The notes beneath the pieces are model-generated. The model saw nothing but the letters and a program-made list of their open reading frames with translations. It ran no database searches and was not told the DNA's origin. The position numbers were made by a program, and so were the translations under genes. A stretch of 64,000 bases of DNA from Mariniphaga sediminis. GTDB taxonomy: Bacteria > Bacteroidota > Bacteroidia > Bacteroidales > Prolixibacteraceae. The stretch lies in NCBI RefSeq assembly GCF_003573545.1, contig NZ_QWET01000007.1, positions 124,001 to 188,000 on the forward strand, written 5' to 3'. The first letter of the stretch is position 1; every line of letters starts with the position of its first letter. Below, piece after piece: positions 5,708 to 20,071 of the stretch.

Positions 5708-5831
5708 AACAATGTAGGCGGGTTGACAAAAAAGCATGTGTGTGGTTGTGAAGGGCAGTCAAATTCTTGCTTTTGTGTGCTGGTATTTCCAACAGAAATC
5801 CCACCCGACCCGCAGGAGGTGACAATTTGTT
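5708..5831 (-). repeat. attC-like site (degenerate)
   Basis: Left arm AACAATGTAGGCGGGTTG pairs imperfectly with a right arm containing CGACCCGC and ACAATTTGTT. The right-hand box GTTGTGTTG matches the box at the far end of the next cassette (CAATACAAG at 6558-6566) at 7 of 9 positions. Confidence 0.5.
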
Positions 5832-5845
5832 GTGTTGCGTTTTTT

Positions 5846-6424
5846 TTAATTTAAAAATTTAATTGATGGAAAATATTTCACTTTCCCTTTTCTGTAGACA
5901 ATAATTGTATTTAAAATAATCAATAAAATATTATATAAATATAATCCTCCGTATATAAAAAGTATGGAGCCAAATCCAAACGGAATCAGTGAAACACGTA
6001 AAATCACACTTAGGGTTGGTAAAATGAAGACAATAAATAGTATTATCGTCCATGTAATCTGAAAGTTCAGGATGGATTTGCCAATAGAATCTACATTTCT
6101 AATTTTGTCCTTTTTAATAACCCAAATGGCCAATGGAATTATTGTTCCGAGCAATGGAAATGCTAAAAATCCTAACTGAGATAAATTGAGCATTGTTAGT
6201 ATATTCTTATCTTCTTGTACTCTCCATTCAATTACATCATCTGGTGATACTTTTAATGCTACAGCTAATCTTTTCAGAGTATCGCCTCGTGGAACAGATT
6301 CTCCATTTTCAATACGTTGAATAGTTCTCAGACTTAATCCTGTCTTGTCCGCAAGCTCCTCTTGGGATAGTCCTTGCTTAATTCTTAAATCTTTTACTCT
6401 TTTTTGTAATTCTAAATTTTTCAT
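5846..6424 (-). CDS. Xre-family HTH protein with DUF4870-like membrane domain
   Basis: A 192-residue membrane-bound putative regulator. Residues 8-62 form a clear Xre/Cro helix-turn-helix (LRIKQGLSQEELADKTGLS, then RTIQRIENG). Residues 75-185 hold four hydrophobic segments in the DUF4870 pattern, including PLAIWVIKKDK, a GKSILNFQ motif and a final hydrophobic hairpin. This domain pairing is frequent in Bacteroidota; its target and signal are unknown. It occupies its own cassette between attC-like sites at 5708 and 6564, and no partner gene is adjacent. Confidence 0.85.
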   Translation of the reverse strand: MKNLELQKRVKDLRIKQGLSQEELADKTGLSLRTIQRIENGESVPRGDTLKRLAVALKVSPDDVIEWRVQEDKNILTMLNLSQLGFLAFPLLGTIIPLAIWVIKKDKIRNVDSIGKSILNFQITWTIILFIVFILPTLSVILRVSLIPFGFGSILFIYGGLYLYNILLIILNTIIVYRKGKVKYFPSIKFLN

Positions 6425-7444: not shown

Positions 7445-8080
7445 TTATTCCATTTCATCAATAAATGTTTGTAATTTATCAATATATTTTCCAACGTGAA
7501 ATCCATCTATAAGTGAATGATTTGCCTGTACCGAAAAAGGCAACAATGTCTTTTCTCCTTGTTTATAATATTTTCCCCATGATATTCTCGGAACCGAATC
7601 GTTTTTATTCAATGATATAGTATGGGAGATATGGGTAAAAGAAATCCAGGGAATACAGGTAATGTATATCAAATCATCTCTTCCAATTAGTTTGTCCAGT
7701 CCAAAATAATCCTTTTGATTTTTACTTGTTTGATTAGCTGTTTTTTCAAACTCACAAATATCATCGGTTAACTCTACTGTTACCATTTTGAACAAATCAT
7801 CTTCTTTGTTTTTGTTCATGTCGGTAAAAGAAGGATGTATCTTATCGTGTAACACGACTTTATCATCCCGTATCCGGTATTTAAAGTTTTCAATCTGGTT
7901 TATTACTGTCGTGGCAGCAAATACCATTGAATAATAAAACGACAATCCTTTTTGTTTGGTAAACTTCATAAAATTGGAGACATCTATATCCATACAAATA
8001 TTGAATTGCGGATAATCCATTCTGTGAAAAAACTCATAGTGTTCTTTTCGTTTCCAATTTTCTAAATCAATAAATTTCAT
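7445..8080 (-). CDS. chloramphenicol acetyltransferase (CatA)-like acyltransferase
   Basis: A 211-residue protein, within 10 of the usual CatA length. The C-terminal motif NHSLIDGFHVGKYIDKLQ aligns with the CatA HHAVCDGFH signature and keeps the catalytic His and the Asp-Gly. WKRKEHYEFF at the N-terminus and PWISFTHISH are also family features. The first His of the HH pair is Asn and the Cys is Ile, as in several uncharacterised CatA homologues, so chloramphenicol resistance should not be assumed. It is the only gene of its cassette. The acetyl-CoA-dependent transfer reaction is established for the family; the substrate here is unknown. Confidence 0.8.
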   Translation of the reverse strand: MKFIDLENWKRKEHYEFFHRMDYPQFNICMDIDVSNFMKFTKQKGLSFYYSMVFAATTVINQIENFKYRIRDDKVVLHDKIHPSFTDMNKNKEDDLFKMVTVELTDDICEFEKTANQTSKNQKDYFGLDKLIGRDDLIYITCIPWISFTHISHTISLNKNDSVPRISWGKYYKQGEKTLLPFSVQANHSLIDGFHVGKYIDKLQTFIDEME

Positions 8081-8131
8081 TTTTTTTTGTCTGTCAATTG
8101 TACAATGCTGTGTTCTTTTTTGCTTCTGACT

Positions 8132-8223
8132 AACGTAAAAATAAACATCAGATTATCAGTCGTTTGCTTTTTTGATGTTTTGCTCATTTTCATCTGTTCT
8201 ACTCCTTCAATTTTACATTAGCA
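8132..8223 (-). repeat. diverged copy of the attC-like cassette leader
   Basis: Starts GACTAACGT and ends ACATTAGCA, with shared inner words (TGTTTTGCT, TTCATC), resembling the 128 bp leader at 13.4, 17.0 and 18.1 kb. It separates the CatA-like gene from the Imm63 gene. Confidence 0.4.
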
Positions 8224-8236
8224 TAAAAAGTCATTG

Positions 8237-8761
8237 CTAGCAGTTGTTTTTCCCATTTTCAGGATACTTTTCAAATGCTAATTTTTCAATTTCTTCTTCT
8301 GGCAATCCTTTTTCTTTTAACTCTCTGTAATATGTTGCCCTGAGTCCAGCTAAGTCATCGAACGGATGACTTTCTAGAATTTGCAAATGCTCCTCATGCT
8401 CTTTTCTACTCCAATTTTCGTTAAGAACAGAAAGAAGTTCTATTTGCTTGTCAAAGGCTATTCTTCTGCAATCTTTGTCCTCAATTCTATTTTTTAGTTC
8501 ATATTTAAAAGCCATTGAGGTGGTAATACCTGAAAAAATCCAGTATAAAAGTTCATCAAGATTTTCAGTTGTTCTTCTTTCAAATTCTGCTCCTCTCTCA
8601 ATTAGCACATAATGAAGTCTCCCTTGTTTGTCTATTTCAATAAGTGGTAGCGCGTCTCCAGATGAGAATCTATGTGTCGGTAACAAATTGGCAGGTGCAT
8701 CAATCTTTTTCGCCAATTCTTCGACTTTTTTTCTAATATGTCGATACCCAATTTTTGCCAT
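8237..8761 (-). CDS. Imm63-family immunity protein
   Basis: A 174-residue soluble protein. The core YVLIERGAEFERRTTENLDE, then LLYWIFSGIT, then DKDCRRIAFDKQIELL and a Trp about eight residues on, matches the Imm63 family of predicted immunity proteins that protect against polymorphic toxins. No toxin gene is next to it. It starts one base after the stop of the barstar gene, so the two are almost certainly cotranscribed and perhaps translationally coupled. The target toxin is unknown. The stop TAG at 8239-8237 lies beside a diverged attC-like leader. Confidence 0.75.
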   Translation of the reverse strand: MAKIGYRHIRKKVEELAKKIDAPANLLPTHRFSSGDALPLIEIDKQGRLHYVLIERGAEFERRTTENLDELLYWIFSGITTSMAFKYELKNRIEDKDCRRIAFDKQIELLSVLNENWSRKEHEEHLQILESHPFDDLAGLRATYYRELKEKGLPEEEIEKLAFEKYPENGKNNC

Positions 8762-8762
8762 T

Positions 8763-9065
8763 TTAATCTATTATTTGAAATTCAATATGGTCATGTTTTC
8801 TTATTATGCCTGTCAATACCGAAATAAGTTCATCGCCCAAATTTTTCCTGCTTTTTGTAAAGTTTGTCCAGATAAGTTTTAGTGTTTCATTGTAACTGAA
8901 AACTCCAAAATCTCCACATAGAATATCATTAAAAGCGTCCAGGTTATGACCCGTTTTAACGTTTATATCTTTTGTTAGAACTCTGTCCACCTCGTCATAG
9001 AATGTTTCAAGGTCAGAAAAATTATCTCCGTCAATTATTGCAATTTTCTGTTCCATTTGCTTCAT
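8763..9065 (-). CDS. barstar-family ribonuclease inhibitor
   Basis: A 100-residue acidic protein. IDGDNFSDLETFYDEVDRVL followed by GHNLDAFNDILCGDFG is the barstar signature (a helix supplying the Asp/Gly segment that plugs the barnase active site). No barnase-like RNase gene is visible nearby, so it is an orphan immunity gene. Its 5' end overlaps the 3' end of the serine hydrolase gene by 35 bp, and Imm63 follows by one base: a tight three-gene cassette. A start at 9056 (MEQKIAI) is also possible. Confidence 0.85.
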   Translation of the reverse strand: MKQMEQKIAIIDGDNFSDLETFYDEVDRVLTKDINVKTGHNLDAFNDILCGDFGVFSYNETLKLIWTNFTKSRKNLGDELISVLTGIIRKHDHIEFQIID

Positions 9066-10524
9066 TTAGAATAACCGATAACGGCTTGTTATTTATTTGT
9101 TCGTCATCAATTTTTATAAATCTAATAATATTTCCTCTCTTTTGTTTTATCAAGAGTTCTTCAATTTTTCCGCTTCCATTCCTTTCAAAAATGAAGTCTC
9201 CTAAGAGTAGTTTTGAAGAATTAAATTCGTCAGGTTTACCTTCAATTGGTTTAAGAAGTATTTTCTCAATTGAATTTTCTGCGAATAAAGAATCTGTTTG
9301 TTCGTGGATTCGGTAGGTTATTAAAAGTTCAGTATTTAAATATATTCCATTGAAATCATTTAAGCCTTTCTGATAAACCAACTTTGTATTATCCTCTTTT
9401 TTTTCGGATTCTTCTCTGAATAAATTTTTGTATTTATTTATTTGTTCTCTTGGGACAGAGTCTTTTACAAACATTTCAGCAACAGAAAATGCGGAGCGCA
9501 TAATATAACTTGAACCTGAATTGCTCAGTAAAACCAAACCAATATTGTGTTCTGGATACAATATTGTTAGATTTCTAAAACCCTGAAATACACCATCGTG
9601 CCAGTAACAATCATTTCCTCTTTTCATTAAACCATAAGCGTAAGGCACTTCTTTTCCAGTATTCAGGGTATCTGTTTCTAGCATTTGAATGATTAATGGA
9701 TTTTTTCTAGAGTATTCGGATAATAAATATTTTGTCCAAGTAGTCATATCGATAAGATTGGAGTAGACAGAGCCTGTTCCTTGAGGGCTTATGTTATCAC
9801 TTGTTCGGTTATACCTGTAATTTTCATACAAATATCCGTAAGCTCTATTATTTATCAGGTCTGCACTGCTTCTTTGGAAAACAGTTTCAGTCAGACCTGC
9901 TGGCTTAAATACATTTTGGTTTATCCAGTCAAAATAACTTGTGTCAGTCACGTTAGTTATTAATTGTCCTAGCAAAACATAATTTGATGAGCAATATTGA
10001 AATTTATTACCTGTCAGAAAATTCAGATTCGATTGACTCTTGATTATTTTGTAGATATTTTGATGTGTTGCAACATTGTTGAAAGTTTGTCCAGATGCAA
10101 GAAATATATACGGCCAATCCCAAATTCCACTAGTATGATGGATTAAATTTCTAACCTGTATAGATTCCCAAAGTTTATTCTCATTTTGAATATAATTTGC
10201 AACTTCAAGACTTGGATTAATCCTTTTTTCTTGGATTAATTTTGAAATACCATAGCCAGTAAATTGTTTCGACACCGAAGCTAAACCAAAGAGAGTTGAA
10301 CTTGTAATTGGTATCTTATGCTCTAAGTCAGATAATCCAAAACAATTCTGGTAAACAATCTTTCCCTCTTTCACAACAGCAATTGCACAACCAGGTCTTT
10401 CCGATTCATTAAATACAGAATATAGACTATCTATTATTACATCATAATTCTTAATGGAATTCTGCGCACTTAAACCAATTGTAAGAAGAGAAAAGAGAAT
10501 CAGTAATTTCAGTTTTGCTATCAT
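9031..10524 (-). CDS. serine hydrolase, beta-lactamase/class C family
   Basis: A 497-residue exported protein. A signal peptide (MIAKLKLLILFSLLTIGLSA) precedes a PBP4*/AmpC-type domain: the catalytic S-x-x-K as SVSK in GLASVSKQFTG near residue 84, the Tyr motif as YCSSNYVLLG near 177, and a WHDG segment near 308 in the place of the KTG/HxG box. The C-terminal 130 residues form an extra domain common in this group. Members act as D-aminopeptidases, esterases or DD-peptidases rather than true lactamases. It leads the operon with the barstar and Imm63 genes; a functional link to them is not evident. Confidence 0.88.
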   Translation of the reverse strand: MIAKLKLLILFSLLTIGLSAQNSIKNYDVIIDSLYSVFNESERPGCAIAVVKEGKIVYQNCFGLSDLEHKIPITSSTLFGLASVSKQFTGYGISKLIQEKRINPSLEVANYIQNENKLWESIQVRNLIHHTSGIWDWPYIFLASGQTFNNVATHQNIYKIIKSQSNLNFLTGNKFQYCSSNYVLLGQLITNVTDTSYFDWINQNVFKPAGLTETVFQRSSADLINNRAYGYLYENYRYNRTSDNISPQGTGSVYSNLIDMTTWTKYLLSEYSRKNPLIIQMLETDTLNTGKEVPYAYGLMKRGNDCYWHDGVFQGFRNLTILYPEHNIGLVLLSNSGSSYIMRSAFSVAEMFVKDSVPREQINKYKNLFREESEKKEDNTKLVYQKGLNDFNGIYLNTELLITYRIHEQTDSLFAENSIEKILLKPIEGKPDEFNSSKLLLGDFIFERNGSGKIEELLIKQKRGNIIRFIKIDDEQINNKPLSVILNEANGTENCNN

Positions 10525-10553
10525 TTTCGTTGTCTTGTCTTCAATAATAAACG

Positions 10554-10793
10554 CTAACGGCAGTCTGTCTAAAAAGTAAAATTAAGCCGCCGAGATTTCA
10601 ATATTTCATTCTTTTCAAAGTTAGTTACCCGAATAATTACTCCTTATAAAAGGTTTTTAGACAGTTTGACGGTCACTTGTAAGTTGTCGTTGCGGATTTC
10701 GGCGCGCGTTCCTGTCCGAAGGACACGGAACTACGAAACGAGAATCCGCAGTTGGCGAACCAGCGAACCCCGCCCTGCAATGTGTTCTTTGTT
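10554..10793 (-). repeat. attC-like site interrupted by a MITE
   Basis: The site begins GCTAACGG at 10553-10560, is broken by 108 bp plus a 4 bp target duplication, and resumes at 10669 as ACGGTCACTTGTAAGTTGTC. It then runs through TGCGGATTTCGG, a CGTGTCC-type loop, ATCCGCAGTTGG and CCCCGCCCTGCAATG to GTTACC at 10791. Removing the insert restores the sequence seen at 17.1 kb. Confidence 0.75.
10561..10668. mobile_element. 108 bp MITE inserted in an attC site
   Basis: Ends read CAGTCTGTCTAAAAA and, inverted, CAAACTGTCTAAAAA, i.e. 15 bp terminal inverted repeats with two mismatches. ACGG is duplicated on both sides (10557-10560 and 10669-10672). There is no reading frame inside, so it must have moved with a transposase supplied elsewhere. 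No parental insertion sequence is in the window. Confidence 0.75.
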
Positions 10794-10801
10794 ACCATTA
10801 G

Positions 10802-11353
10802 TTATTTATAATATTTTTCCCAGATTTCATCCAATTCTTTTCCTGTCCGTCCATATTTCTTAATATAGTATGCTGCACCTTTATACCTTGCTTTAATATC
10901 TTCTCTTTCCTCATAAACATTGGAATAAGATTCTATAATTGGTTTATCTAACAATATTTTGGAGTATTTAAATTTGTTTTCCCCTTCTAAAGTTACGAGT
11001 GTTTTATATTTCAGTCCAATTATTGCTTTTTCAAAGTCTTCGCTGTCAAAGTCAAATGATTGACTCTCTAGTTTTATTATGCTGTCATTATATTGGATAT
11101 CAATAACCAGAAAATAGTGGTGGATTCTGTTACTCTCAGTCTCATATTTATAAGTTAATCTGCATTCAACTTCTGTTCCGTATTTTTTTATCGTTTCTCG
11201 TGCATTCTCTCTTGACTTATCTGCAATTTGTCCTAAATATGAAATTCCAATAATCATTGCAATGGCAATAATAGAAAGTATTATTCCGGCAGATTTCATA
11301 GAGATTTTTGGCGAATTTTTCTTGTTATTATTTAACTTTTTCTTAGTCGTCAT
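10802..11353 (-). CDS. small membrane-anchored protein, unknown
   Basis: A 183-residue protein. A Lys/Asn-rich cytoplasmic N-terminus (1-18) is followed by one membrane helix (about 20-42, AGIILSIIAIAMIIGISYLG) and a 140-residue charged domain, predicted outside the membrane, with beta-rich and then helical character ending in a Tyr/Lys-rich tail. No family recognised. It lies 45 bp downstream of the Fic gene and just before an attC site, so both genes probably form one cassette. Confidence 0.65.
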   Translation of the reverse strand: MTTKKKLNNNKKNSPKISMKSAGIILSIIAIAMIIGISYLGQIADKSRENARETIKKYGTEVECRLTYKYETESNRIHHYFLVIDIQYNDSIIKLESQSFDFDSEDFEKAIIGLKYKTLVTLEGENKFKYSKILLDKPIIESYSNVYEEREDIKARYKGAAYYIKKYGRTGKELDEIWEKYYK

Positions 11354-11398
11354 ATCAGTTAAATCTGGTTTTTGTTACAGACTGGGTTTTAATTTTTA

Positions 11399-12520
11399 CT
11401 ATTCTATATCTACCAATTCATAACTTGTACTTCGTCCGCCTCCTTCAGTTTTTCTCAAAATATTTTTATTTATTAAGTCCTGAATATCTCTCAAAGCAGT
11501 ATCTGTTGAGCATTTGGTAATTTTTGCCCATTTCGATGAAGTCAATTTTCCATCAAATCCATCAAGTAATTTATTAAGAAGTAATTTTTGCCTGTCATTC
11601 TGAAGTTTCGTTGCATTTAAATTCCAGAATTTGTGTTTGTAAATTACTTTCCCCAGAACTTGGTTTGAAGAATTTAGCGCATTGAATAAGCACATTAAAA
11701 ACCATTCCAGCCAATTTGTAATTTCTACAGTTCCTTTTTGTGTTTTTTCAAGATTATTGTAGTACTGCTTCCTTTCTCTGCTTATTTGTGCAGACATGCT
11801 ATAAAATCGTTGTGATATTCCGTCCGACTTTGCTAATTGCATATCAGTTATTGCTCTGGCTATTCTACCATTTCCGTCTTCAAAAGGGTGAATAGTGACA
11901 AACCACAAATGCGCAATTCCTGCTTTAATAACAGGGTCTTGTCCTTCATTTTTGTTGAACCATTCTAAAAATTGGTTTATTTCATTCTCAATAGTTGAAG
12001 CGTCCGGAGCCTGATAGTGAACTTTTTCTTTTCCCAAAGCACCGGAAACGACTTGCATTGGGCCTGTTGAGTCGTCTCTCCAGTTTCCAACAATCATTTT
12101 ATACATTCCACTTCTTCCAGTTGGGAATAGGGCAGCATGCCAATCAAAAAGTCTTTCTTTTGTTAGTGGTAGAGAATAATTTTGTGTGGCATCCAACATC
12201 ATTTCTACAACTCCTTCAACATCTCTGTCGGATGGAATTAATCCTGAAATTTCCATTCCCAGACGACGAGCCAACGATGAGCGCACTTGCTCCCGATCTA
12301 AAATTTCTCCCTCAATTTCGTTTGATTTTATAACATCAAGAGTCAATGTTTCTAGTGTTGCTTCATTTCTAAGATCAAAACCCAGTGATTCCATTTTACC
12401 CACAAGCTTTCCTTGTAAGTTTCTTACTTTTCCTAACAACGAGAGCAGTTTTTCATTGTCCCATTTAAAGTTAGCCCAACCTTCTTTTTGATATATGTAA
12501 ATTTTTATTCTCCGCAACAT
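11399..12520 (-). CDS. Fic-family protein with DUF4172 N-terminus and winged helix
   Basis: Predicted AMP-transferase of 373 residues. The N-terminal DUF4172 region (IYIYQKEGWANFKWD, then LQGKLVGKMESLGF) is followed by the inhibitory helix motif S-x-x-x-E-G in KSNEIEGE, which blocks ATP gamma-phosphate binding in class II Fic proteins. The active-site loop HPFEDGNGRIAR near residue 215 is intact. The C-terminal 70 residues look like a winged helix (TKCSTDTALRDIQDLINKNIL), so it may bind DNA. The start at 12520 reads MLRRIKIYIYQ. Its first codons and upstream region hold a duplicated 54 bp unit of TGCGG-type half-sites, a plausible autoregulatory operator. Confidence 0.9.
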   Translation of the reverse strand: MLRRIKIYIYQKEGWANFKWDNEKLLSLLGKVRNLQGKLVGKMESLGFDLRNEATLETLTLDVIKSNEIEGEILDREQVRSSLARRLGMEISGLIPSDRDVEGVVEMMLDATQNYSLPLTKERLFDWHAALFPTGRSGMYKMIVGNWRDDSTGPMQVVSGALGKEKVHYQAPDASTIENEINQFLEWFNKNEGQDPVIKAGIAHLWFVTIHPFEDGNGRIARAITDMQLAKSDGISQRFYSMSAQISRERKQYYNNLEKTQKGTVEITNWLEWFLMCLFNALNSSNQVLGKVIYKHKFWNLNATKLQNDRQKLLLNKLLDGFDGKLTSSKWAKITKCSTDTALRDIQDLINKNILRKTEGGGRSTSYELVDIE

Positions 12521-12612
12521 TTGCGATAAATATACTACTTATTCTCCGCATATTCATTTTAATCGTCGCAGATTATGCGACAAATAAAGATATTAATCGC
12601 CGCATATTGTTT
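12505..12612 (-). promoter_or_regulatory. two 54 bp tandem units of TCCGCA/TCGCA half-sites upstream of fic
   Basis: On the plus strand TTATTCTCCGCA occurs at 12505 and 12539, and TTAATCGTCGCA / TTAATCGCCGCA at 12559 and 12593, so spacings are 34, 20 and 34 bp. In each unit the first half-site is followed by an inverted partner (TTGCGATAAA at 12521, ATGCGACAAA at 12575). Such ordered repeats usually bind a protein; the Fic winged helix is the obvious candidate. Confidence 0.5.
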
Positions 12613-12616
12613 TTTT

Positions 12617-12650
12617 AAACCCCGCCCTGCAATATGTACATTGTTATGGG
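12617..12650 (-). repeat. half attC-like site
   Basis: Only the right arm AACCCCGCCCTGCAATATG plus TACATTGTTATGGGC remains; the left arm is replaced by the fic upstream repeats. Its box GTTATGGGC is perfectly complementary to GCCCATAAC at 13500-13508, the other end of this cassette. Confidence 0.65.
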
Positions 12651-12657
12651 CTGGGTT

Positions 12658-13242
12658 TTATTTTAATCTGTAAGCAATACCTAAACTTAAACATATTGCT
12701 GTCATTTTCTGATTTCCGTCCTCCAACTTCGGATTTGAAATAAAGTAGTCACTACTAATCAATAAACACCATTTTTTTGCAAAATTATAACGAAATGACG
12801 CACCCAAATCAAATGAGATTCTGGTTCCTTCATTTTTTTCATATTCACTTAGGTCAGATGTCGCTGACACAAAACCAATCATTCCCTTCAAATCAAAATC
12901 AAGTTTTTCAATAACAGGAATTGATAACATTGGACCTCCCATCAAACCGCCATAGCTCCATATTGCATCAACTCCATTAATATTGGCAGAATAGGCAGCA
13001 CCAAACCAAGATGCAGAAATTCCAACGTATTGCCCAAAAATGTATCCAAAATTTATTGGGTTAAAATTGATTCCCCATTCAGCAAAACCAGCATTGACAT
13101 TACTAGGTGAATTATCAGCAAAATCACCAATGGGAAACGATGGTCCTAATGAAATACCAATTAAACCTTTTCTATCTAAACTTTGCGCAAATACATTGCC
13201 ACTCAGTACAACTAGGGATAAAATAATAATGAACTTTTTCAT
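12658..13242 (-). CDS. small outer-membrane beta-barrel protein
   Basis: A 194-residue exported protein. Signal peptide MKKFIIILSLVVLSGNVFAQ with cleavage after FAQ. The mature part is made of alternating-hydrophobic strands rich in Gly and aromatics, and it ends SLGIAYRLK, a typical beta-barrel C-terminal strand. Size suggests about eight strands (OmpA/OmpX-like outer membrane protein beta-barrel family). No transport or enzymatic role can be read. It is a single-gene cassette with matching ends and carries the shared 128 bp leader upstream of its start. Confidence 0.75.
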   Translation of the reverse strand: MKKFIIILSLVVLSGNVFAQSLDRKGLIGISLGPSFPIGDFADNSPSNVNAGFAEWGINFNPINFGYIFGQYVGISASWFGAAYSANINGVDAIWSYGGLMGGPMLSIPVIEKLDFDLKGMIGFVSATSDLSEYEKNEGTRISFDLGASFRYNFAKKWCLLISSDYFISNPKLEDGNQKMTAICLSLGIAYRLK

Positions 13243-13372
13243 TCGAATTCGTTTTAGCTTTATAATAGGTTGTCGTCTTGTTATATTATTATTTACTACT
13301 AAAAGTTAATTCTAAGATTTTTTTGATGGTAATTTTTGTTTGTCCGCTTGGGTTACTTCCTTTTTTAACCTT

Positions 13373-13500
13373 CCGACTAACGTCAAAGTTAATCTTTTGA
13401 TTTATTGACATTTAGTTGTTTTGCTTTTTCTCATTAAATAATGGCTAAAAAAAGACGTTAGCAAAAAAACTCAACTGTTTTACAACCAGTAGGAGGATTG
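13373..13500 (-). repeat. cassette leader repeat, copy 1
   Basis: This 128 bp copy differs from the copy at 18061-18188 by a single base (GACATTT versus GATATTT). It is bounded by GACTAACGTC and, inverted, GACGTTAGC, so it is itself attC-shaped. On the minus strand it ends TAACTTTGACGTTAG, containing a TAnnTTTG -7 box (13391-13384). Confidence 0.75.
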
Positions 13501-13505
13501 CCCAT

Positions 13506-13628
13506 AACGGTCACTTGTATGTGGTCGGGCGAGATTTCGAAAAGAAATCCAATCAGACCCGCAGGAAAGTGGGCAATTGGTCTGACCTGTCAGACCGCTA
13601 AAACCCCGCCTGCCATATACAATTTGTT
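13506..13628 (-). repeat. attC-like site
   Basis: Left arm AACGGTCACTTGTATG and right arm GCCATATACAATTTGTT frame an inner palindrome GGTCTGACCTGTCAGACC. The right box GTTAGCGGC pairs with GCCGCCAAC at 14201-14209 (8 of 9). Confidence 0.7.
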
Positions 13629-14145
13629 AGCGGCTGGTGTTATTTTTTTTATTCTTAATCTTTTTCCATTTTTCTTTAATATCTTTTTCACCATCGAAAT
13701 AGTTTACTTGTGAATCGTTTTTAAATATCTCCATTGTTGGTGCAATTAAAATTTTATTCGAATCAGGGTATACTGCAACATCGTATCCAATAAATGTCCT
13801 AACGTCCAGGAATATACAAACCTCACTGGTGTGATTATATAATTGGTGAGCACCCTTTTCCCCTTTCTCGAAGAAGATCAAATCTCCAGTATTTACAATT
13901 TCTAATCCTTGGGGAGTTCTCAATGTTGCAGAACCAGAAATTATCATAAAAAGCTCTTCTGCATACCGATGAAAATGGTAGGGAGCTGAGTATTGGTCGG
14001 GATTTAATTGTCTTAAATCAAAGTTTAAGTTTTCAGGATTAATTCCCTTATTTATTCTTGAAACATCTGTGAAAATCTTGTAATTGTCAGTTTTATTAGG
14101 TGTTTCTTGAAATTCTCTTTGGTCTGATTTCAAAATTTTTGCCAT
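13627..14145 (-). CDS. cupin-domain protein
   Basis: A 172-residue single-domain cupin. The metal-site pattern H-F-H-R-Y-A-E-E at about 56-63 (HFHRYAEELF), a GxxxxxTPxG strand and GDLIFFEKGEKGAHQLYN with the distal His form the two cupin motifs. Such proteins are isomerases, dioxygenases or sugar-binding proteins; the substrate cannot be read. The C-terminal Lys/Asn-rich tail (WKKIKNKKNN) ends at a TAA supplied by the attC recombination box (GCTAAC), so the stop depends on the cassette junction. Its cassette lacks the 128 bp leader. Confidence 0.8.
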   Translation of the reverse strand: MAKILKSDQREFQETPNKTDNYKIFTDVSRINKGINPENLNFDLRQLNPDQYSAPYHFHRYAEELFMIISGSATLRTPQGLEIVNTGDLIFFEKGEKGAHQLYNHTSEVCIFLDVRTFIGYDVAVYPDSNKILIAPTMEIFKNDSQVNYFDGEKDIKEKWKKIKNKKNNTSR

Positions 14146-14206
14146 AATCTAAAATCTTTTTAAAATCAAAACTATCAAGTTGCTTTATCGTTTTCCACTT
14201 GCCGCC

Positions 14207-14329
14207 AACGTGTTTGTATATGAAAAGTTGCGTTTATTTACACGCAACTTTTCGGTTTAATTCGGATCATAAATATATGAAAAAGCGAATGGATTAAGTA
14301 TTTGTCAGCCATTTTTTATATACGTTGTT
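14207..14329 (-). repeat. attC-like site with internal perfect hairpin
   Basis: Outer arms (TGTATATGAAAA and TTTTTTATATACG) carry AAC and GTT edges. Inside, GAAAAGTTGCG and CGCAACTTTTC form a perfect 11 bp stem at 14222-14253. The right box GTTAGCTGC matches GCCGCTAAC at 17102-17110 at 8 of 9 positions. Confidence 0.65.
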
Positions 14330-14359
14330 AGCTGCTGTGCTTTCGGTGAACATTGTTAA

Positions 14360-15283
14360 TCAGCAACAACCTGTTTCTCCGCTTGATTCCGTTCCGCAAC
14401 AACTTGCTTTTTCAGATGTAGTATTTTTTTCGCTTCCACAACATCCACTATCGGTCGTTTCGCAACAGCTACCTTCGTCTAATTTGTCCGCATAGATTGT
14501 TACGCTATAAATTCCTGAACCTGATTGTTTAAATTTATCCAATTCTTCTTGATTTAGGTATTTTAACAACAAGTCGTTTGGTAAGTCTATTTTTCGTTCT
14601 GTTTTAATTTGGATATTCTTAAATCCTGCCGATTTAATAATTCCTAAATATTCGCCTTTTTCACTTGCTCCTGCCACGCAACCTGAATATAACTCTGCTG
14701 CCTCCAAAATTCCTTTTGGAAGTGAACCAATATAAACAATATCGGAAATACTAAAATGCCCACCTGTTTTTAAAGTTCTGAAAACTTCGTTAAATGCTTT
14801 TGTCTTGTTAGGTACAAGGTTCATAACACAATTACTTATTACCACATCTGCTACGGAACTTGTAATATTCTGCATATCTTCGATTTCACCTAATACAAAT
14901 TCTACATTTTGATAGCCCAATTTTTGAGTGTTCTGCAAGGCTTTTATAACCATTTCGGGTGTCATATCAATCCCAATTACCTTTCCAGTTTCGCCTACAA
15001 TCCTACGAGCAATAAATGCATCATTTCCAGCACCAGAACCAAGGTCGATAACTGTGTCGCCTTCGTTAATATTTGCGATTTCCGTTGGAAGTCCACAACC
15101 CAATGATAAGTCTGAGTCTTTTTCATAGCCTTCTATGTTTTCATAGTTTTCAGCCATTGAAGTGCTAAACTCGTCTGTGGTGCAACATTCTGAATCTGTA
15201 GAACAGCAACCTACTTGAATATTGCCTTTCGCAATGTTTCCATAGGATTTTCTGATTTCTTCTTTAATTGTTTCTGTATACAT
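14360..15283 (-). CDS. arsM: arsenite S-adenosylmethionine methyltransferase
   Basis: Methylates As(III) with SAM to volatile or less toxic methylarsenicals in the cytoplasm. 307 residues. SAM-binding motif I is VIDLGSGAGNDAF near residue 78. The three conserved As(III)-binding Cys are present: LGCGLP near 63, ISNCVMN near 151 and YSGCVAG near 202. The Cys-pair-rich N-terminus (CCSTDSECC) and C-terminus (four further Cys pairs) may capture or hand over arsenic. It is the last gene of an operon with a SigZ-like sigma factor, a Cys-rich exported peptide and a PIG-L deacetylase, all in one cassette about 2.9 kb long. No arsR, arsB or arsC is in the window. Confidence 0.93.
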   Translation of the reverse strand: MYTETIKEEIRKSYGNIAKGNIQVGCCSTDSECCTTDEFSTSMAENYENIEGYEKDSDLSLGCGLPTEIANINEGDTVIDLGSGAGNDAFIARRIVGETGKVIGIDMTPEMVIKALQNTQKLGYQNVEFVLGEIEDMQNITSSVADVVISNCVMNLVPNKTKAFNEVFRTLKTGGHFSISDIVYIGSLPKGILEAAELYSGCVAGASEKGEYLGIIKSAGFKNIQIKTERKIDLPNDLLLKYLNQEELDKFKQSGSGIYSVTIYADKLDEGSCCETTDSGCCGSEKNTTSEKASCCGTESSGETGCC

Positions 15284-15295
15284 TCTTTTTGAAAT

Positions 15296-16015
15296 TTAAT
15301 TGTTTATTAATTCGGTTATTGATGAAAGCATTTTTGGATGCGTTTCATTTTCTAATTCAAAATAAGTTTTATCTCCAATTCTGTCAATTACATTAGTGGT
15401 CTTGACCATTTCTTGGTAGGTGTCGTAACAAAGCAAGGCCTCTTTCATTTTTTGAATATTGGCATTGCCCAATTTTTCGGTTACCATAATATCCTCTTTT
15501 TTCGTCCAAGTAACTCTTGGTATTCCGCCTTCAAAGAACATAGGAAGTCCAGTATCTATAACGGTGAAATATGCAAGTCGTTTCCAAAATTGTAATGTAT
15601 CTTTTTTGCCGAAAAAAAGCCTTTTGATGATATGATGCAGTGCAATATGGTCGTGATGTCCACTTCCACCGTGAACAGGATAGGTGATGACTACACTGGG
15701 TTGGTAGTGCTGCAACCAATTTAATATTTCGATTTCAAGATGAAAAGGATTGACTTTTGCAAGTCCACCATCTTGGTAATCTAAAATGGTCATTTCTGAA
15801 ATGCCTAAAGTCTTTTGCACTTTTTGCATTTCTTTTTCTCTTACTGCTCCCATTTCAGAAATGGACAAACCAAGGTTGTGTCTTACTTTGGTAGCTCCTC
15901 CTTTTGTAAGTGTCAGAAGAATAACCTCGTTTCCTTCTTTAATCTGTTTGTCGATTGCTCCAGCTGGTCCAAATGATTCGTCATCAGGATGTGGAACGAT
16001 GTACATGATTTCCAT
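15296..16015 (-). CDS. PIG-L/LmbE-family deacetylase
   Basis: A 239-residue protein. The zinc-site motif PHPDDE lies at residues 8-13 when started at the ATG 16015, the position usual for the family; an in-frame ATG at 16048 would add 11 residues. GGSGHHDH near 120 supplies the later His ligand. Members remove N-acetyl groups from GlcNAc conjugates (BshB, MshB, LmbE-like). In this arsenic-linked operon a role in a low-molecular-weight thiol such as bacillithiol is possible but not shown. It ends 12 bp before arsM. Confidence 0.88.
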   Translation of the reverse strand: MEIMYIVPHPDDESFGPAGAIDKQIKEGNEVILLTLTKGGATKVRHNLGLSISEMGAVREKEMQKVQKTLGISEMTILDYQDGGLAKVNPFHLEIEILNWLQHYQPSVVITYPVHGGSGHHDHIALHHIIKRLFFGKKDTLQFWKRLAYFTVIDTGLPMFFEGGIPRVTWTKKEDIMVTEKLGNANIQKMKEALLCYDTYQEMVKTTNVIDRIGDKTYFELENETHPKMLSSITELINN

Positions 16016-16069
16016 ATTGTCTTTTGATTTGTTTATATAAACACGCAAAACGGTTAAAAAAGACGCAAA

Positions 16070-16093
16070 AAAAAGCGAGCTACGGCTCGCTTT
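16070..16093 (-). terminator. rho-independent terminator after the Cys-rich peptide gene
   Basis: On the minus strand AGCGAGCC-GTA-GCTCGCT is followed by a run of T, directly after the stop at 16100. It would attenuate transcription between the sigma-factor/peptide pair and the deacetylase/arsM pair. Confidence 0.75.
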
Positions 16094-16099
16094 AGAAAA

Positions 16100-16273
16100 T
16101 TAGTCGCAACTTTTAGTGCAACAACTTTTTGTTTCCAAATCGGTCGGACAACATTTTGTTTTATCGCAACATTCGGTTTTTGTTTTTTCGGTTACTTTTT
16201 GGTCATTTATTCCTGCATACACTGCAAGTGAAGTAACAAAAGCAACCAAAACAATGATTACAATTTTTTTCAT
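16100..16273 (-). CDS. 57-residue Cys-rich exported peptide
   Basis: The ATG at 16273 opens MKKIVIIVLVAFVTSLAVYA, a signal peptide or membrane anchor, followed by a 37-residue tail with seven Cys in the pattern ECC, KCC, SCC, SC. The Cys pairs resemble the C-terminal tail of the neighbouring ArsM. It lies between the SigZ-like gene (75 bp upstream) and the deacetylase, and ends at a strong terminator. I do not recognise a named family. A periplasmic metal or arsenic chelator or sensor is inferred from composition and neighbours. Confidence 0.75.
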   Translation of the reverse strand: MKKIVIIVLVAFVTSLAVYAGINDQKVTEKTKTECCDKTKCCPTDLETKSCCTKSCD

Positions 16274-16347
16274 TGTTGTTAAAATTTTGGGATTCAGGCA
16301 ATATCACCCTTATGTATATGATGTAGAAATATAAAAAAGGCGCAAAA

Positions 16348-16908
16348 TTAGGAACAAGCGCAATTCTTATCTTCTGTGTCCCTCAAGTTTCCATAACTGT
16401 CGCTTGGATAATTGCAACAAGCTAATATGAGTTCTTTCAGTTTTTCTTTGCCTCTCTGAACTCTTGACTTTGCACCTGAATAGGAAATATTAAGCTGTTC
16501 CGCCAAATCTTTTTGACTGATATTTTCAAATTCCGATTTGGTCAATGCCACTTGGTATTTTTCTGGAAGTTGTTTGATGAAAGGTTTTATACAGCAATCT
16601 GCGATAGTAGCGTTTAAAGATTCGGTTTCCTCTTCGGAAATAAGCGTATAGTCGTTTTCAATGTTATTTTTTTTGTCAGATTTTCTAAAGTGGTCGATTG
16701 TAGTGTTACGTGCTATTCCATAAATATATTGCTGTACACTTTTAGCTTGTGCAATTTTGTCAGCATTATTTATTATTTTAAGAAATACATCCTGTAAAAT
16801 GTCATTGGCTATATTTTCGTCCTTTACTTTTTTTAGTATGAAGTTTTTTAATTCTATATGGAAATCATTCCAAATATTTTCGGTTATGTCGTTCATTAAA
16901 TTTGTCAA
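16348..16908 (-). CDS. sigZ: SigZ-like ECF RNA polymerase sigma factor
   Basis: A 186-residue sigma-70-family protein. Region 2 spans about 12-80 (DILQDVFLKI, SVQQYIYGIARNTTIDHFR) and region 4 about 112-160 (LPEKYQVALTKSEFENISQK, then LAEQLNISYSGAKSRVQRG). The C-terminal tail (ACCNYPSDSYGNLRDTEDKN, CACS) is Cys-rich with a YGN motif, as in SigZ proteins, and could sense metal or thiol state. No anti-sigma gene follows. It heads the Cys-rich peptide/deacetylase/arsM operon, which it may control. A start at 16896 (MNDITEN) is also possible. Confidence 0.88.
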   Translation of the reverse strand: MTNLMNDITENIWNDFHIELKNFILKKVKDENIANDILQDVFLKIINNADKIAQAKSVQQYIYGIARNTTIDHFRKSDKKNNIENDYTLISEEETESLNATIADCCIKPFIKQLPEKYQVALTKSEFENISQKDLAEQLNISYSGAKSRVQRGKEKLKELILACCNYPSDSYGNLRDTEDKNCACS

Positions 16909-16975
16909 TTTTGTTCCTTTCCTATACTAGGACGTAGAAAAGTTTAAAAGGACGCAAAATGTTTTTTCAGCATTT

Positions 16976-17102
16976 CGACTAACGTCAAAGTTAATCTTTT
17001 GATTTATTGATATTTAGTTGTTTTGCTTTTTCTCATTAAATAATGGCTAAAAAAAGACGTTAGCAAAAAAACTCAACTGTTTTACAACCAGTAGGAGGAT
17101 TG
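16976..17102 (-). repeat. cassette leader repeat, copy 2
   Basis: Same sequence as 18061-18188 from CGACTAACGTC onwards. It sits between the SigZ-like gene start (16908) and the attC at 17108. Its TAACTTTG box (minus, 16993-16986) would start transcription about 70 bases before the sigma-factor ATG. Confidence 0.75.
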
Positions 17103-17107
17103 CCGCT

Positions 17108-17233
17108 AACGGTCACTTGTAAGTTGTCATTGCTGATTTCGGAGAGTGTTCCTGTCCGAAAGATACGGAACTGCGAAACGAGAATCCGCAGTTGGCGTAC
17201 CACCAAACCCCGCCCTGCAATATGTACATTGTT
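17108..17233 (-). repeat. attC-like site
   Basis: AACGGTCACTTGTAAGTTG ... CCCCGCCCTGCAATATG TACATTGTT. The right box GTTATAGCC is perfectly complementary to GGCTATAAC at 18188-18196. The central part (TCCTGTCCGAAAGATACGGA and the ATCCGC stem) is shared with the sites at 10.7 and 18.2 kb. Confidence 0.8.
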
Positions 17234-17267
17234 ATAGCCAGTTTTTTATTTCATTTATCTCGTAATT

Positions 17268-17732
17268 TTACTTCTTATTCCAGTTTAGGTCAAACTTTTT
17301 AATTATATCCCCATTTTCGTTAATCGAATCATTTGGAATAGCAGGACTTAACGAATGAAATGGGGAATATCCTTCTTGTTTATGATACCAGTGTTTTTCG
17401 AGTTTTGAATATCTTCCACAGCATTCTAAAGAAAAATATGTGAATTTATCATCTGCATTTTCTATCTGAACATTTATCCATTCAGGGATTGCATATTCCA
17501 TCCACAATAAATCAATTACCTCTTCTGCTTCAATTGGTTTTGATGTTTGATTCAATTTTTCTACTTCTGGAAATGTAATCTCACCGTCTTCTAATCCATC
17601 TCTAAAGTTGGAACTTATTTTAACAATAAATTTAAATTGTTCTGGCAGTTTATTAATTACCATCTCCTTTGTGAAAGGGTAAACTTTATTTACTGCTTTT
17701 ATCAGATTATTATAGAATTCTTTTTTGTTCAT
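17268..17732 (-). CDS. hypothetical protein
   Basis: A 154-residue soluble protein without signal peptide. It begins MNKKEFYNNLIKAVNKVYPF and has an acidic middle (FRDGLEDGEITFPEVEKL), an aromatic segment (LLWMEYAIPEWINV) and a conserved-looking YFSLECCGRYSK. The layout resembles small immunity-type proteins, but I cannot place it in a family. It shares one cassette with the 80-residue gene upstream, 74 bp apart. Confidence 0.65.
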   Translation of the reverse strand: MNKKEFYNNLIKAVNKVYPFTKEMVINKLPEQFKFIVKISSNFRDGLEDGEITFPEVEKLNQTSKPIEAEEVIDLLWMEYAIPEWINVQIENADDKFTYFSLECCGRYSKLEKHWYHKQEGYSPFHSLSPAIPNDSINENGDIIKKFDLNWNKK

Positions 17733-17806
17733 TATTTATTATACATCGTTGAAACATATTTATCTCAAACTCTTTTTCAGTTGTTTTTACTTTCATAATG
17801 TTTAGG

Positions 17807-18049
17807 CTATTCACATTGAAAGTTTCTACCTATTTCTTTGTCGAATTCATTAATTAGTTTTTCCAGAATTTCCAATGGCAAATCAGTTCGGAATGTTGAA
17901 ATTTGAATCTTCTTTAAATTATCATTTCTAAAAATCTCGGCAACAATTTCATTTCTATCATTATCCCAAAGTTCAATGCCGAGTCCATCTCGGACAATGT
18001 CACTGGCAATTATTATTTTATAATTGATATTGTCAACTGTAATACTCAT
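17807..18049 (-). CDS. small hypothetical protein
   Basis: An 80-residue acidic protein: ASDIVRDGLGIELWD, then VAEIFRND and LPLEILEKLINEFDKEIG. The RDGLGIEL and EIFR words recur in small Bacteroidota proteins of unknown function that I recall only in general terms. The start at 18049 lies 12 bases from the 128 bp leader, whose -7 box would give a leader RNA of about 16 bases. It is the first gene of a two-gene cassette. Confidence 0.65.
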   Translation of the reverse strand: MSITVDNINYKIIIASDIVRDGLGIELWDNDRNEIVAEIFRNDNLKKIQISTFRTDLPLEILEKLINEFDKEIGRNFQCE

Positions 18050-18060
18050 CTTTTAAAATT

Positions 18061-18188
18061 CCGACTAACGTCAAAGTTAATCTTTTGATTTATTGATATT
18101 TAGTTGTTTTGCTTTTTCTCATTAAATAATGGCTAAAAAAAGACGTTAGCAAAAAAACTCAACTGTTTTACAACCAGTAGGAGGATTG
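18061..18188 (-). repeat. cassette leader repeat, copy 3
   Basis: 128 bp, from CCGACTAACGTC to CAGTAGGAGGATTG. Read on the minus strand it goes from the recombination box through GCTAACGTC to TAACTTTGACGTTAGTCGG just before the gene. No reading frame of note inside. Confidence 0.75.
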
Positions 18189-18193
18189 GCTAT

Positions 18194-18319
18194 AACGGTT
18201 GGTACATGTTGTCGGGGCGGATTTCGGAGAGCGTTCCTGTCCGGTAGGACACGGAACTGCGAAACGAGAATCCGCAGTTGGCGTACCACCGAACCCCGCC
18301 CTGCAATATGTACTGTGTT
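18194..18319 (-). repeat. attC-like site
   Basis: AACGGTTGGTACATGTTGTC pairs with GCCCTGCAATATGTAC. The right box GTTGTGTGTA is complementary over ten bases to TACACACAAC at 20110-20119, delimiting the 579-codon cassette. Confidence 0.8.
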
Positions 18320-18331
18320 GTGTGTAGTTTT

Positions 18332-20071
18332 TTATTTTTCATTTAACGAATTGCTTGTATTTCTCAGTCCTATATAAAGTTTATCATATATTTTTTCACA
18401 TGCTGTCAGATAGTTGCCGGTTATTTCGTTTGAGTCTATTCCTAAAGACTTAAAAGCTTTAATAAGTTTTTGGACTGAATTACTTCCTTCTTGATGTGAG
18501 TCTAATTGCCTTAAAATATTTAGTGCTTCCAAAAGTTTCATTAATTCCATTTCTTCATAGTCATTCACAAGTCGTGAATTTATTTCACCGGAATCATTTT
18601 TTAAGTCCAATCCAGTTTCATTTGAGATTCTGATATAATTGAGAATGAGATTTAACAGTTTGATGCTTCTAAACTGTTCAGAAGGTGACTTTTTGAAATT
18701 ATCGAGGTCAACTCTTATAATATTTTTTAGAATATTTCGCAATTCTTTCTCTACCAGATTTTCTACAAGAAATAAATGTAATTTCTTCTGTCGGACAAGG
18801 AATGCATCTTTTGATAATGTATGCGCTAGATGGTGCGTGATTGGTTTTATGCTGGCATTATTATACCAAGCGTAATAATTCAGGTCTTTTCTATTTATTT
18901 TTATTAAATCCTGGCTTGAGAGTTTTAATCCAAAATTGTCGTTTAAAATCGTCGCTAGAAGTTCGCCAAAACGAAGATAACTGAATACTAGTTTTTTTGA
19001 CCTTTCTGCTATATTTTCTTTGGTTTCATCAATCTTGGATTTATCCACCTGATATTTATTCCAATAGGATATAACTTCATTAGGAGTTCCTTCATATAAT
19101 TTAAAAAGTTCGATTTCAATGTGATTTCTTCCAATTCGATTACATCTTGTGACAGACCATTGATTTTTATAGCTCACGCCACCAGTTTCAGGGCAGACGC
19201 TATAATTCTCGTCTTGTTCATATTTTCCAAGGACTTCATCCGAAACGTAAACATAATCCCAATGTTTTGCATTTAATCGGGTAATTTTATCCTTATACCC
19301 TGACCAGTAGTGAGCTTTTTCTTTTCTGTCCCATTTGCTGAAAGGAATATTATTTCCAAGCTTTATTTGCCTAAAACCCGTTACCTCAGTGAAAATCTCA
19401 TTTTCGGAAATTTTATTGATTCGAAAATGGCTAAATTTTGTAGTTTTTTCGAAAAATCTATTCTGTCCGAGTAGCCCTTCGAGTTCGGTATTCAGTGGTA
19501 ATATTCTTGTTTCACAATAAACTTGGATTAGCGTTTTCTTTTTTAGCATCAAATAATCCTGTAAATAATCTTTACGGATTTTGACATAGCTTTTTGAATA
19601 AATTGGAAAATCATAAACAGATTTGGGAATGGACTGCACAACATCCATCTGCGGTTTACTTAAATCATCCCAATTTATATTTGTTTCTGTCAATCTTGGG
19701 GTTAAACCATAAGTCAATAAAAAGTATGGGTCAATCTGGAAGGTGATATTATTCGCAGATTCCCAAGATATAACAAGAGGTTTTACCTTGTCAAGTCCTT
19801 CTACTCTTGTAACAAAAACAGTTGATTCTCCTTCATACTCGTAATTCTCGTCATATGCTGGACGCACTGAGCTATCCGATGTTTGATTTATTTCATCGGG
19901 TTTTATATGTTCTATTAGTTCAGGGTTAATCAGTAAAGTTTGATAATCTCGTGTAGAATTTATTCCAGATTGCAATTCATGTGTATTTAATTCACTAACA
20001 TAAATGTATTCTCTTTCTATAGGAGAAAAATTTTTTACGTCGGCAAATATGTCGGGGAACCAATTTTCCAT
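18332..20071 (-). CDS. large protein of unknown function, sole cargo of a cassette
   Basis: A 579-residue soluble protein with no signal peptide or membrane helix; far longer than usual cassette cargo. The N-terminal third is mixed (VFVTRVEGLDKVKPLVISWE, then a YFLLTYGLTPR segment and YVKIRKDYLQDYLMLKKKTL). The middle is rich in Trp/Tyr (AHYWSGYKDK, WDYVYVSDEV) with CPETGG. The C-terminal 250 residues are mostly helical (HHLAHTLSKDAFL, LLEALNILRQL). I see no nuclease, ATPase, HEPN or peptidase signature. Large lone cassette genes are often defence-related, but nothing in the sequence proves that. It is the first gene of the array as read on the minus strand. Confidence 0.8.
   Translation of the reverse strand: MENWFPDIFADVKNFSPIEREYIYVSELNTHELQSGINSTRDYQTLLINPELIEHIKPDEINQTSDSSVRPAYDENYEYEGESTVFVTRVEGLDKVKPLVISWESANNITFQIDPYFLLTYGLTPRLTETNINWDDLSKPQMDVVQSIPKSVYDFPIYSKSYVKIRKDYLQDYLMLKKKTLIQVYCETRILPLNTELEGLLGQNRFFEKTTKFSHFRINKISENEIFTEVTGFRQIKLGNNIPFSKWDRKEKAHYWSGYKDKITRLNAKHWDYVYVSDEVLGKYEQDENYSVCPETGGVSYKNQWSVTRCNRIGRNHIEIELFKLYEGTPNEVISYWNKYQVDKSKIDETKENIAERSKKLVFSYLRFGELLATILNDNFGLKLSSQDLIKINRKDLNYYAWYNNASIKPITHHLAHTLSKDAFLVRQKKLHLFLVENLVEKELRNILKNIIRVDLDNFKKSPSEQFRSIKLLNLILNYIRISNETGLDLKNDSGEINSRLVNDYEEMELMKLLEALNILRQLDSHQEGSNSVQKLIKAFKSLGIDSNEITGNYLTACEKIYDKLYIGLRNTSNSLNEK

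What the first reader, a model, noticed from the sequence alone, without database searches (positions are those of the whole stretch)
13373..18188. Same 128 bp attC-shaped leader at the head of three different cassettes
Copies at 13373-13500, 16976-17102 and 18061-18188 differ at one internal base while their cassettes carry unrelated genes. Each lies right after the matched recombination box and before the first gene. The element is bounded by GACTAACGTC and GACGTTAGC and ends, as read, in TAACTTTGACGTTAG, where a TAnnTTTG promoter box abuts a GTTAG box. It may be a gene-free promoter cassette spreading through the array. A diverged copy lies at 8132-8223.
Basis: partly seen in the sequence, partly recalled or inferred. 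Interest (0 to 1): 0.62.

Follow-up and report, generated by a model that had tools for sequence, protein, structure and literature searches.

The report
Miniature transposon targeting integron cassette junctions
The repeated 127-base leader is a tiny, gene-less relative of an IS110-type (RNA-guided family) jumping element that lands just inside integron-style gene cassettes, pointing a possible promoter at each cassette's gene; it is not a gene-free cassette itself.

Summary
In detail: three near-identical copies, 13373-13499, 16975-17101 and 18061-18187 (minus strand), a fourth on another contig, and a distant relative at 8126-8235. The interpretation changes. The leader is a 127-bp miniature, non-autonomous IS110-family element (MITE). 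Its left ~45 bp and right ~20 bp are the ends of 1.65-kb IS110 transposons in related Bacteroidota that encode a DEDD transposase and lie, like the leader, right after an attC R' box. An uninterrupted related cassette in the same genome gives the empty site: GTTATAGCC|AATTTT versus GTTATAGCC|[127 bp]|AATTTT. Cassette R'/R'' pairs match across leader plus gene, and differ between copies, so the leader sits inside gene cassettes and is not a cassette. The "attC shape" is the element's subterminal inverted repeat. Similar minis occur in at least eight other Bacteroidota genomes, always after GTTANNNNC|AA. The right end carries a conserved Bacteroidota -7-like box (TAACTTTG) aimed at the cassette gene, so a mobile-promoter role is plausible but unproven (no clear -33 box). 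attC-targeting IS are known; I found no report of attC-targeting IS110 MITEs. In passing: the host arrays follow a non-standard integrase lacking the IntI-specific domain (20 of 20 downstream, same strand).

The parts
13373..13499 (-). Mini-IS110 (MITE) copy 1, 127 bp, inserted between R' GTTATGGGC and the cassette of gene 12658-13242
   Evidence: Sequence and genome search; ends equal to IS110 ends in L057/L058
16975..17101 (-). Mini-IS110 copy 2, 127 bp, after R' GTTAGCGGC
18061..18187 (-). Mini-IS110 copy 3, 127 bp, after R' GTTATAGCC
   Evidence: empty site in own genome at C41 (L080)
8126..8235 (-). Distant member with short left end (AATGACTTTTTATGCTAATG ... TTTTTACGTTAGTCAG), not after an attC
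   Evidence: Joint inverted-repeat and right-end signature, 0 in 30 shuffled windows
13384..13391 (-). TAACTTTG, Bacteroidota -7-like box in the right end, copy 1
   Evidence: Sequence; conserved in most minis
16986..16993 (-). TAACTTTG, copy 2
   Evidence: Sequence
18072..18079 (-). TAACTTTG, copy 3
   Evidence: Sequence
13500..13632 (-). attC-like site upstream of copy 1; R' GTTATGGGC at 13500-13508
   Evidence: BLAST to attC set; hairpin fold z -3.3
17102..17240 (-). attC-like site upstream of copy 2; R' GTTAGCGGC at 17102-17110
18188..18326 (-). attC-like site upstream of copy 3; R' GTTATAGCC at 18188-18196
   Evidence: fold z -4.5
17231..17239 (-). R'' GGCTATAAC ending the cassette that begins at copy 3 (matches its R')
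13626..13634 (-). R'' GCCGCTAAC ending the cassette that begins at copy 2 (matches its R')
12643..12651 (-). R'' GCCCATAAC ending the cassette that begins at copy 1 (matches its R')
12658..13242 (-). Cassette gene after copy 1 (weak OMP_b-brl beta-barrel match, just below the Pfam cut-off)
16348..16908 (-). First gene after copy 2
17807..18049 (-). First gene after copy 3; ATG 11 nt after the element; 82% identical gene sits in the empty-site cassette

Best explanation
The leader is a 127-bp non-autonomous IS110-family element. It keeps the two ends that the transposase uses (left ~45 bp with a small hairpin and GCTAACG; right ~20 bp with CGTTAGT) and has lost the transposase gene and the guide-RNA region. 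An IS110-type transposase with its bridge/seek RNA, supplied in trans, inserted it in one orientation at GTTANNNNC|AA, the R' box of attC plus the first bases of the next cassette. Because the cut is 9 bp beyond the start of the GTT core, the attC crossover should stay intact and the mini is then carried as part of the downstream cassette. Its right end always faces the cassette gene, so its TAACTTTG box could start a transcript there. Shown: ends, target, empty site, cassette boundaries, copies in other genomes. Inferred: mobilisation in trans, a circular intermediate, continued attC function, promoter activity.
For: Partial copies in G012 and G024 are the left ends of 1.65-kb elements with the same right end (GACGTTAGTCGG|AA) and a protein that, for G012, matches DEDD_Tnp_IS110, Transposase_20 and NF033542 'IS110 family RNA-guided transposase'; the G024 protein is 80% identical to it. 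Both lie after attC R' boxes. Empty site in the same genome. Minis of 94-137 bp with conserved ends in at least eight other Bacteroidota genomes; all 12 follow GTTANNNNC|AA, and 19 of 28 left-end loci have GTTA there. R'/R'' match across mini plus gene: 5 exact of 14 loci, C12 8 of 9 bases. The mini's DNA fold lacks the attC hairpin. Published work moved artificial mini IS bounded by LE 29 bp and RE 16 bp with transposase and RNA supplied separately from the mini IS (PMC11187229), and a 22-bp IS621 donor with bridge RNA in trans (PMC11208160).
Against: No autonomous element with the same left end was found in this genome; the nearest is a cousin on contig C47 whose transposase is 60% identical to the G012 one. 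R'/R'' matches were not found for 8 of 14 loci, several of them on short contigs. The interior of the mini is not visibly derived from the full element. The guide pairing to attC could not be worked out convincingly. The empty site is a related cassette (82% identical), not the same cassette before insertion.
Confidence: 0.9

Rival explanations
1. Gene-free integron cassette carrying a promoter, moved by the integron integrase.
For: Boundary boxes GCTAACGTC/GACGTTAGT resemble attC R''/R'; copies lie in cassette arrays. Gene-less cassettes with promoter activity are known in Vibrio (PMC11014356).
Against: R' boxes differ between copies and match the far attC of leader plus gene; no L boxes, and the fold does not join the two boxes; the same boxes bound 1.65-kb IS110 elements; an uninterrupted related cassette exists.
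Confidence: 0.03
2. Ancestral 5' leader of a cassette family, inherited or spread by homologous recombination rather than by transposition.
For: Copies are nearly identical and always at the cassette start.
Against: Cassette genes and R' boxes are unrelated; empty site; complete transposons with the same ends and site; diverged minis in other Bacteroidota at the same site.
Confidence: 0.04
3. The same mini-IS110 is now a dead relic: it moved in the past but no helper works on it now, and it has no effect on expression. (This qualifies the best explanation's activity, not its identity.)
For: No autonomous copy with the same left end in this genome; no clear -33 box near TAACTTTG.
Against: Four copies 97-99% identical imply recent spread; the right end with TAACTTTG is conserved in L055 although the interior has diverged.
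Confidence: 0.35

Closest known systems
IS1111-attC group (ISKpn4, ISPst6, ISPa25 and relatives; Tetu and Holmes 2008, Post and Hall 2009, cited in PMC11187229)
   Same: DEDD transposase elements with subterminal inverted repeats that insert at a fixed place and orientation in attC sites of gene cassettes
   Different: Those have the guide-RNA region downstream of the transposase; the Bacteroidota full elements have it upstream (IS110 arrangement). The leader is a transposase-less miniature.
IS110 family with bridge RNA (IS621, ISEc21)
   Same: Transposase domains, upstream non-coding region with hairpin loops, insertion without target duplication, orientation-specific
   Different: Target is the attC R' box; clear subterminal inverted repeats; miniature derivative lacks transposase and RNA
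Prokaryotic MITEs (review PMC10969869)
   Same: Short, non-coding, ends of a larger transposon, multiple near-identical copies
   Different: The review names no IS110-derived MITE; integron-linked MITEs described there flank whole class 1 integrons rather than target attC
Promoter-carrying gene-less cassettes of Vibrio superintegrons (PMC11014356)
   Same: Small gene-free unit in a cassette array that may drive the next gene
   Different: Those are true cassettes with their own attC; this is an insertion inside gene cassettes

Membership tests
IS110/IS1111 insertion sequences (as non-autonomous derivative) | Ends shared with an element that encodes a DEDD_Tnp_IS110 + Transposase_20 protein | tested here: met
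   L057, L058 share left ~45 bp and right ~12-20 bp; Pfam and NCBIfam hits above cut-off for the L058/L006 protein
IS110/IS1111 insertion sequences (as non-autonomous derivative) | Insertion at a fixed sequence in one orientation, no target duplication | tested here: met
   GTTANNNNC|AA in 12 of 12 minis; empty site
IS110/IS1111 insertion sequences (as non-autonomous derivative) | Guide (bridge/seek) RNA that pairs with target and donor | tested here: inconclusive
   Full elements have a conserved upstream non-coding region with apical hairpins of changing sequence; pairing not resolved; the mini lacks it
IS110/IS1111 insertion sequences (as non-autonomous derivative) | Circular intermediate and junction promoter | not testable with these tools
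   Needs PCR or sequencing reads
IS1111-attC group | Targets attC of gene cassettes | tested here: met
IS1111-attC group | Non-coding guide region downstream of tnp (IS1111 arrangement) | tested here: not met
   The long non-coding region lies upstream of tnp in L057 and L058; only a few tens of nt follow tnp
MITE | Short non-coding element with ends of an autonomous transposon, several copies | tested here: met
   127 bp, no substantial ORF, four copies in the genome
Gene-less integron cassette | Own attC, with the same R' in all copies matching its own R'' | tested here: not met
   Four different R' boxes matching distal attCs
Canonical integron (host array) | IntI above the TIGR02249 cut-off with the IntI-specific insertion | tested here: not met
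   Own protein scores 211 bits against a cut-off of 265; profile positions about 180-238 are not matched

The most novel reading that the evidence does not exclude
An RNA-guided mobile promoter for integron cassettes: attC-targeting IS110 machinery places a 127-bp promoter unit at cassette starts, always pointing at the gene, while leaving attC usable, so silent cassettes far from any array promoter are switched on and then carry their promoter along.
Probability: 0.25. Interest if true: 0.75.

Novelty: new variant of a known kind. Interest (0 to 1): 0.5.

Why it matters
attC-targeting IS and MITEs are known separately; a miniature attC-targeting IS110 element that does not disrupt the cassette would be a simple way for cassettes to gain promoters and travel with them. 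It also gives a natural example of IS110 ends stripped of transposase and guide RNA, useful for asking what the ends alone need. It corrects a plausible misreading: subterminal inverted repeats of these IS look like attC boxes.

Tried and rejected
Gene-free cassette or attC: rejected by R'/R'' pattern, fold and empty site. Known RNA family or riboswitch: no Rfam match in 8000-19000, nor in L057/L058 at E up to 1. Plasmid-borne relatives of the mini: none in PLSDB. Automatic R'' search upstream of each insertion: uninformative, since the R'' there belongs to the previous cassette. Reading guide segments of the bridge RNA against target and donor: only a weak trend (GC-AAT or GT-AAT in the 3' loop following the target's last base), not claimed. 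Small ORFs inside minis (e.g. MRKSKTTKYQ): present in several but not conserved; treated as chance. Tetu and Holmes 2008 is not held, so its insertion point was not compared base by base.

Full report
What is there. On the minus strand the three leaders read AATCCTCCTACTGGTTGTAAAACAGTTGAGTTTTTTTGCTAACG...GATTAACTTTGACGTTAGTCGG, 127 bp, at 18061-18187, 16975-17101 and 13373-13499. A genome search gives a fourth copy on contig C12 (L004) and nothing else at that similarity. Each copy follows the R' box of an attC-like site: GTTATAGCC, GTTAGCGGC, GTTATGGGC and, on C12, GTTATCTGC.

The ends are transposon ends. Among 60 relatives, one (G014) had a full-length copy at 78% identity and three had matches only to the left ~45 bp. 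Two of these (G012 = L006/L009/L058, G024 = L007/L010/L057) continue into a transposase gene; the L006 protein carries DEDD_Tnp_IS110 and Transposase_20 domains and scores 220 bits against NF033542, IS110 family RNA-guided transposase (cut-off 140); the G024 protein is 80% identical to it. It is weakly similar to the solved ISCro4 and IS621 transposases. Both elements end about 1,650 bp later in GACGTTAGTCGG|AA, like the leader, and both begin directly after an attC R' box.

A scan of 84,980 species genomes with the left-end pattern gave 23 loci, all in Bacteroidota. Some are truncated at contig ends but contain the start of the guide-RNA region of full elements; others (L046, L049, L050, L051, L052, L055, L061, with L031) are minis of 94-137 bp with variable AT-rich interiors. 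All 12 minis follow GTTANNNNC and are followed by AA; over all 28 left-end loci, 19 have GTTA at that place. Elements lacking GTTA (L041, L043, L044, L047, L059 and others) probably have other targets.

Empty site. A cassette on contig C41 of the same genome carries a gene 82% identical to 17807-18049, and its start reads ...AAGTGACCGTTATAGCC|AATTTTGAAAAGATGG. Copy 3 reads ...CAACCGTTATAGCC|[127 bp]|AATTTTAAAAGATGAG. The insertion is therefore exactly 127 bp with no duplication beyond the shared AA(T).

It lies inside cassettes. A cassette's first bases (R') pair with the R'' of the attC at its own end (established integron knowledge). For copies 3, 2 and 1 the R'' complements of GTTATAGCC, GTTAGCGGC and GTTATGGGC head attC sites 948, 3467 and 848 bases after the start of the mini; G014 and L051 also match exactly, C12 in 8 of 9 bases. 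The mini travels with the gene; it is not a unit of its own.

Not attC-shaped. In single-strand DNA folding, two of the neighbouring attCs form a long hairpin (z -4.5 and -3.3), the third only weakly (z about -2), whereas the mini's minimum-energy folds do not pair the two boundary boxes with each other. Those boxes are the subterminal inverted repeats GCTAACG/CGTTAGT, also present in relatives not at attC (L017, L018).

Promoter question. The right end holds TAACTTTG (TAnnTTTG type) in the window copies, L055, L031 and L049, with near variants in L046, L050, L052 and L061. In 10 of 12 minis an ORF of at least 60 codons starts on the same strand within 1-234 nt. No convincing -33 box lies at the usual distance in the window copies (read by eye). 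Junction promoters are known in ISEc11, ISEc21 and IS621. I rate promoter activity plausible, about 0.4.

How it would move. Published assays show that IS110-type transposase plus its RNA moves cargo bounded by very short ends (LE 29 bp, RE 16 bp), and that a 22-bp donor with RNA in trans suffices for IS621. The full elements here have an upstream non-coding region with conserved segments and two apical hairpins whose stems change sequence (read from the alignment); the mini has none of it. No full element with this left end is in the held assembly; the C47 element (L018) is a cousin.

Known or new. attC-targeting IS1111 elements are described. The Bacteroidota elements differ by having the guide region upstream of the transposase. 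A 2024 review of prokaryotic MITEs mentions IS1111 only as inserting into a MITE, and IS110 not at all. I found no report of an attC-targeting MITE within the held library of open papers. Hence: new variant of a known kind.

Noticed in passing
G000:C3 (L084: integrase about 9419-10540 minus, attC 8431-8559 and 5804-5931 minus); L085-L091 in relatives: The attC-like arrays of this family follow a ~374-aa tyrosine recombinase that lacks the IntI-specific insertion (TIGR02249 below cut-off, NF040815 XerA/integron integrase just above). In the family, 20 of 20 such genes with a listed attC within 40 kb on the same contig have it downstream on the same strand (coordinates typed in, best-scoring attCs only). 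Possibly a non-canonical Bacteroidota integron; IntegronFinder 2.0 reported complete integrons as very rare there.
   Followed up: partly
window 8041-8235: A small ORF beginning inside the diverged mini (MKMSKTSKKQTTDN...) appears, read by eye, to run out of its right end and stop in an ATGA overlap with the start of the acetyltransferase-like gene 7445-8080, as if for translational coupling.
   Followed up: no
window 7445-20071: Cassette-like genes include a chloramphenicol acetyltransferase-family protein, Imm63 immunity protein, beta-lactamase-fold protein and a cupin, typical integron-array cargo.
   Followed up: no
window 12617-12651 and 10666-10800: An attC cut off after its first ~35 bp and one with a broken R' box (ACCGTCAAACTG), signs of decay in the array.
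   Followed up: no
L041, L043, L059 versus L057, L058, L045, L056: In full elements the 3' loop of the presumed target-binding hairpin reads GT-AAT where the insertion site ends in T and GC-AAT where it ends in C, a weak hint of guide-target covariation; L060 is an exception.
   Followed up: partly
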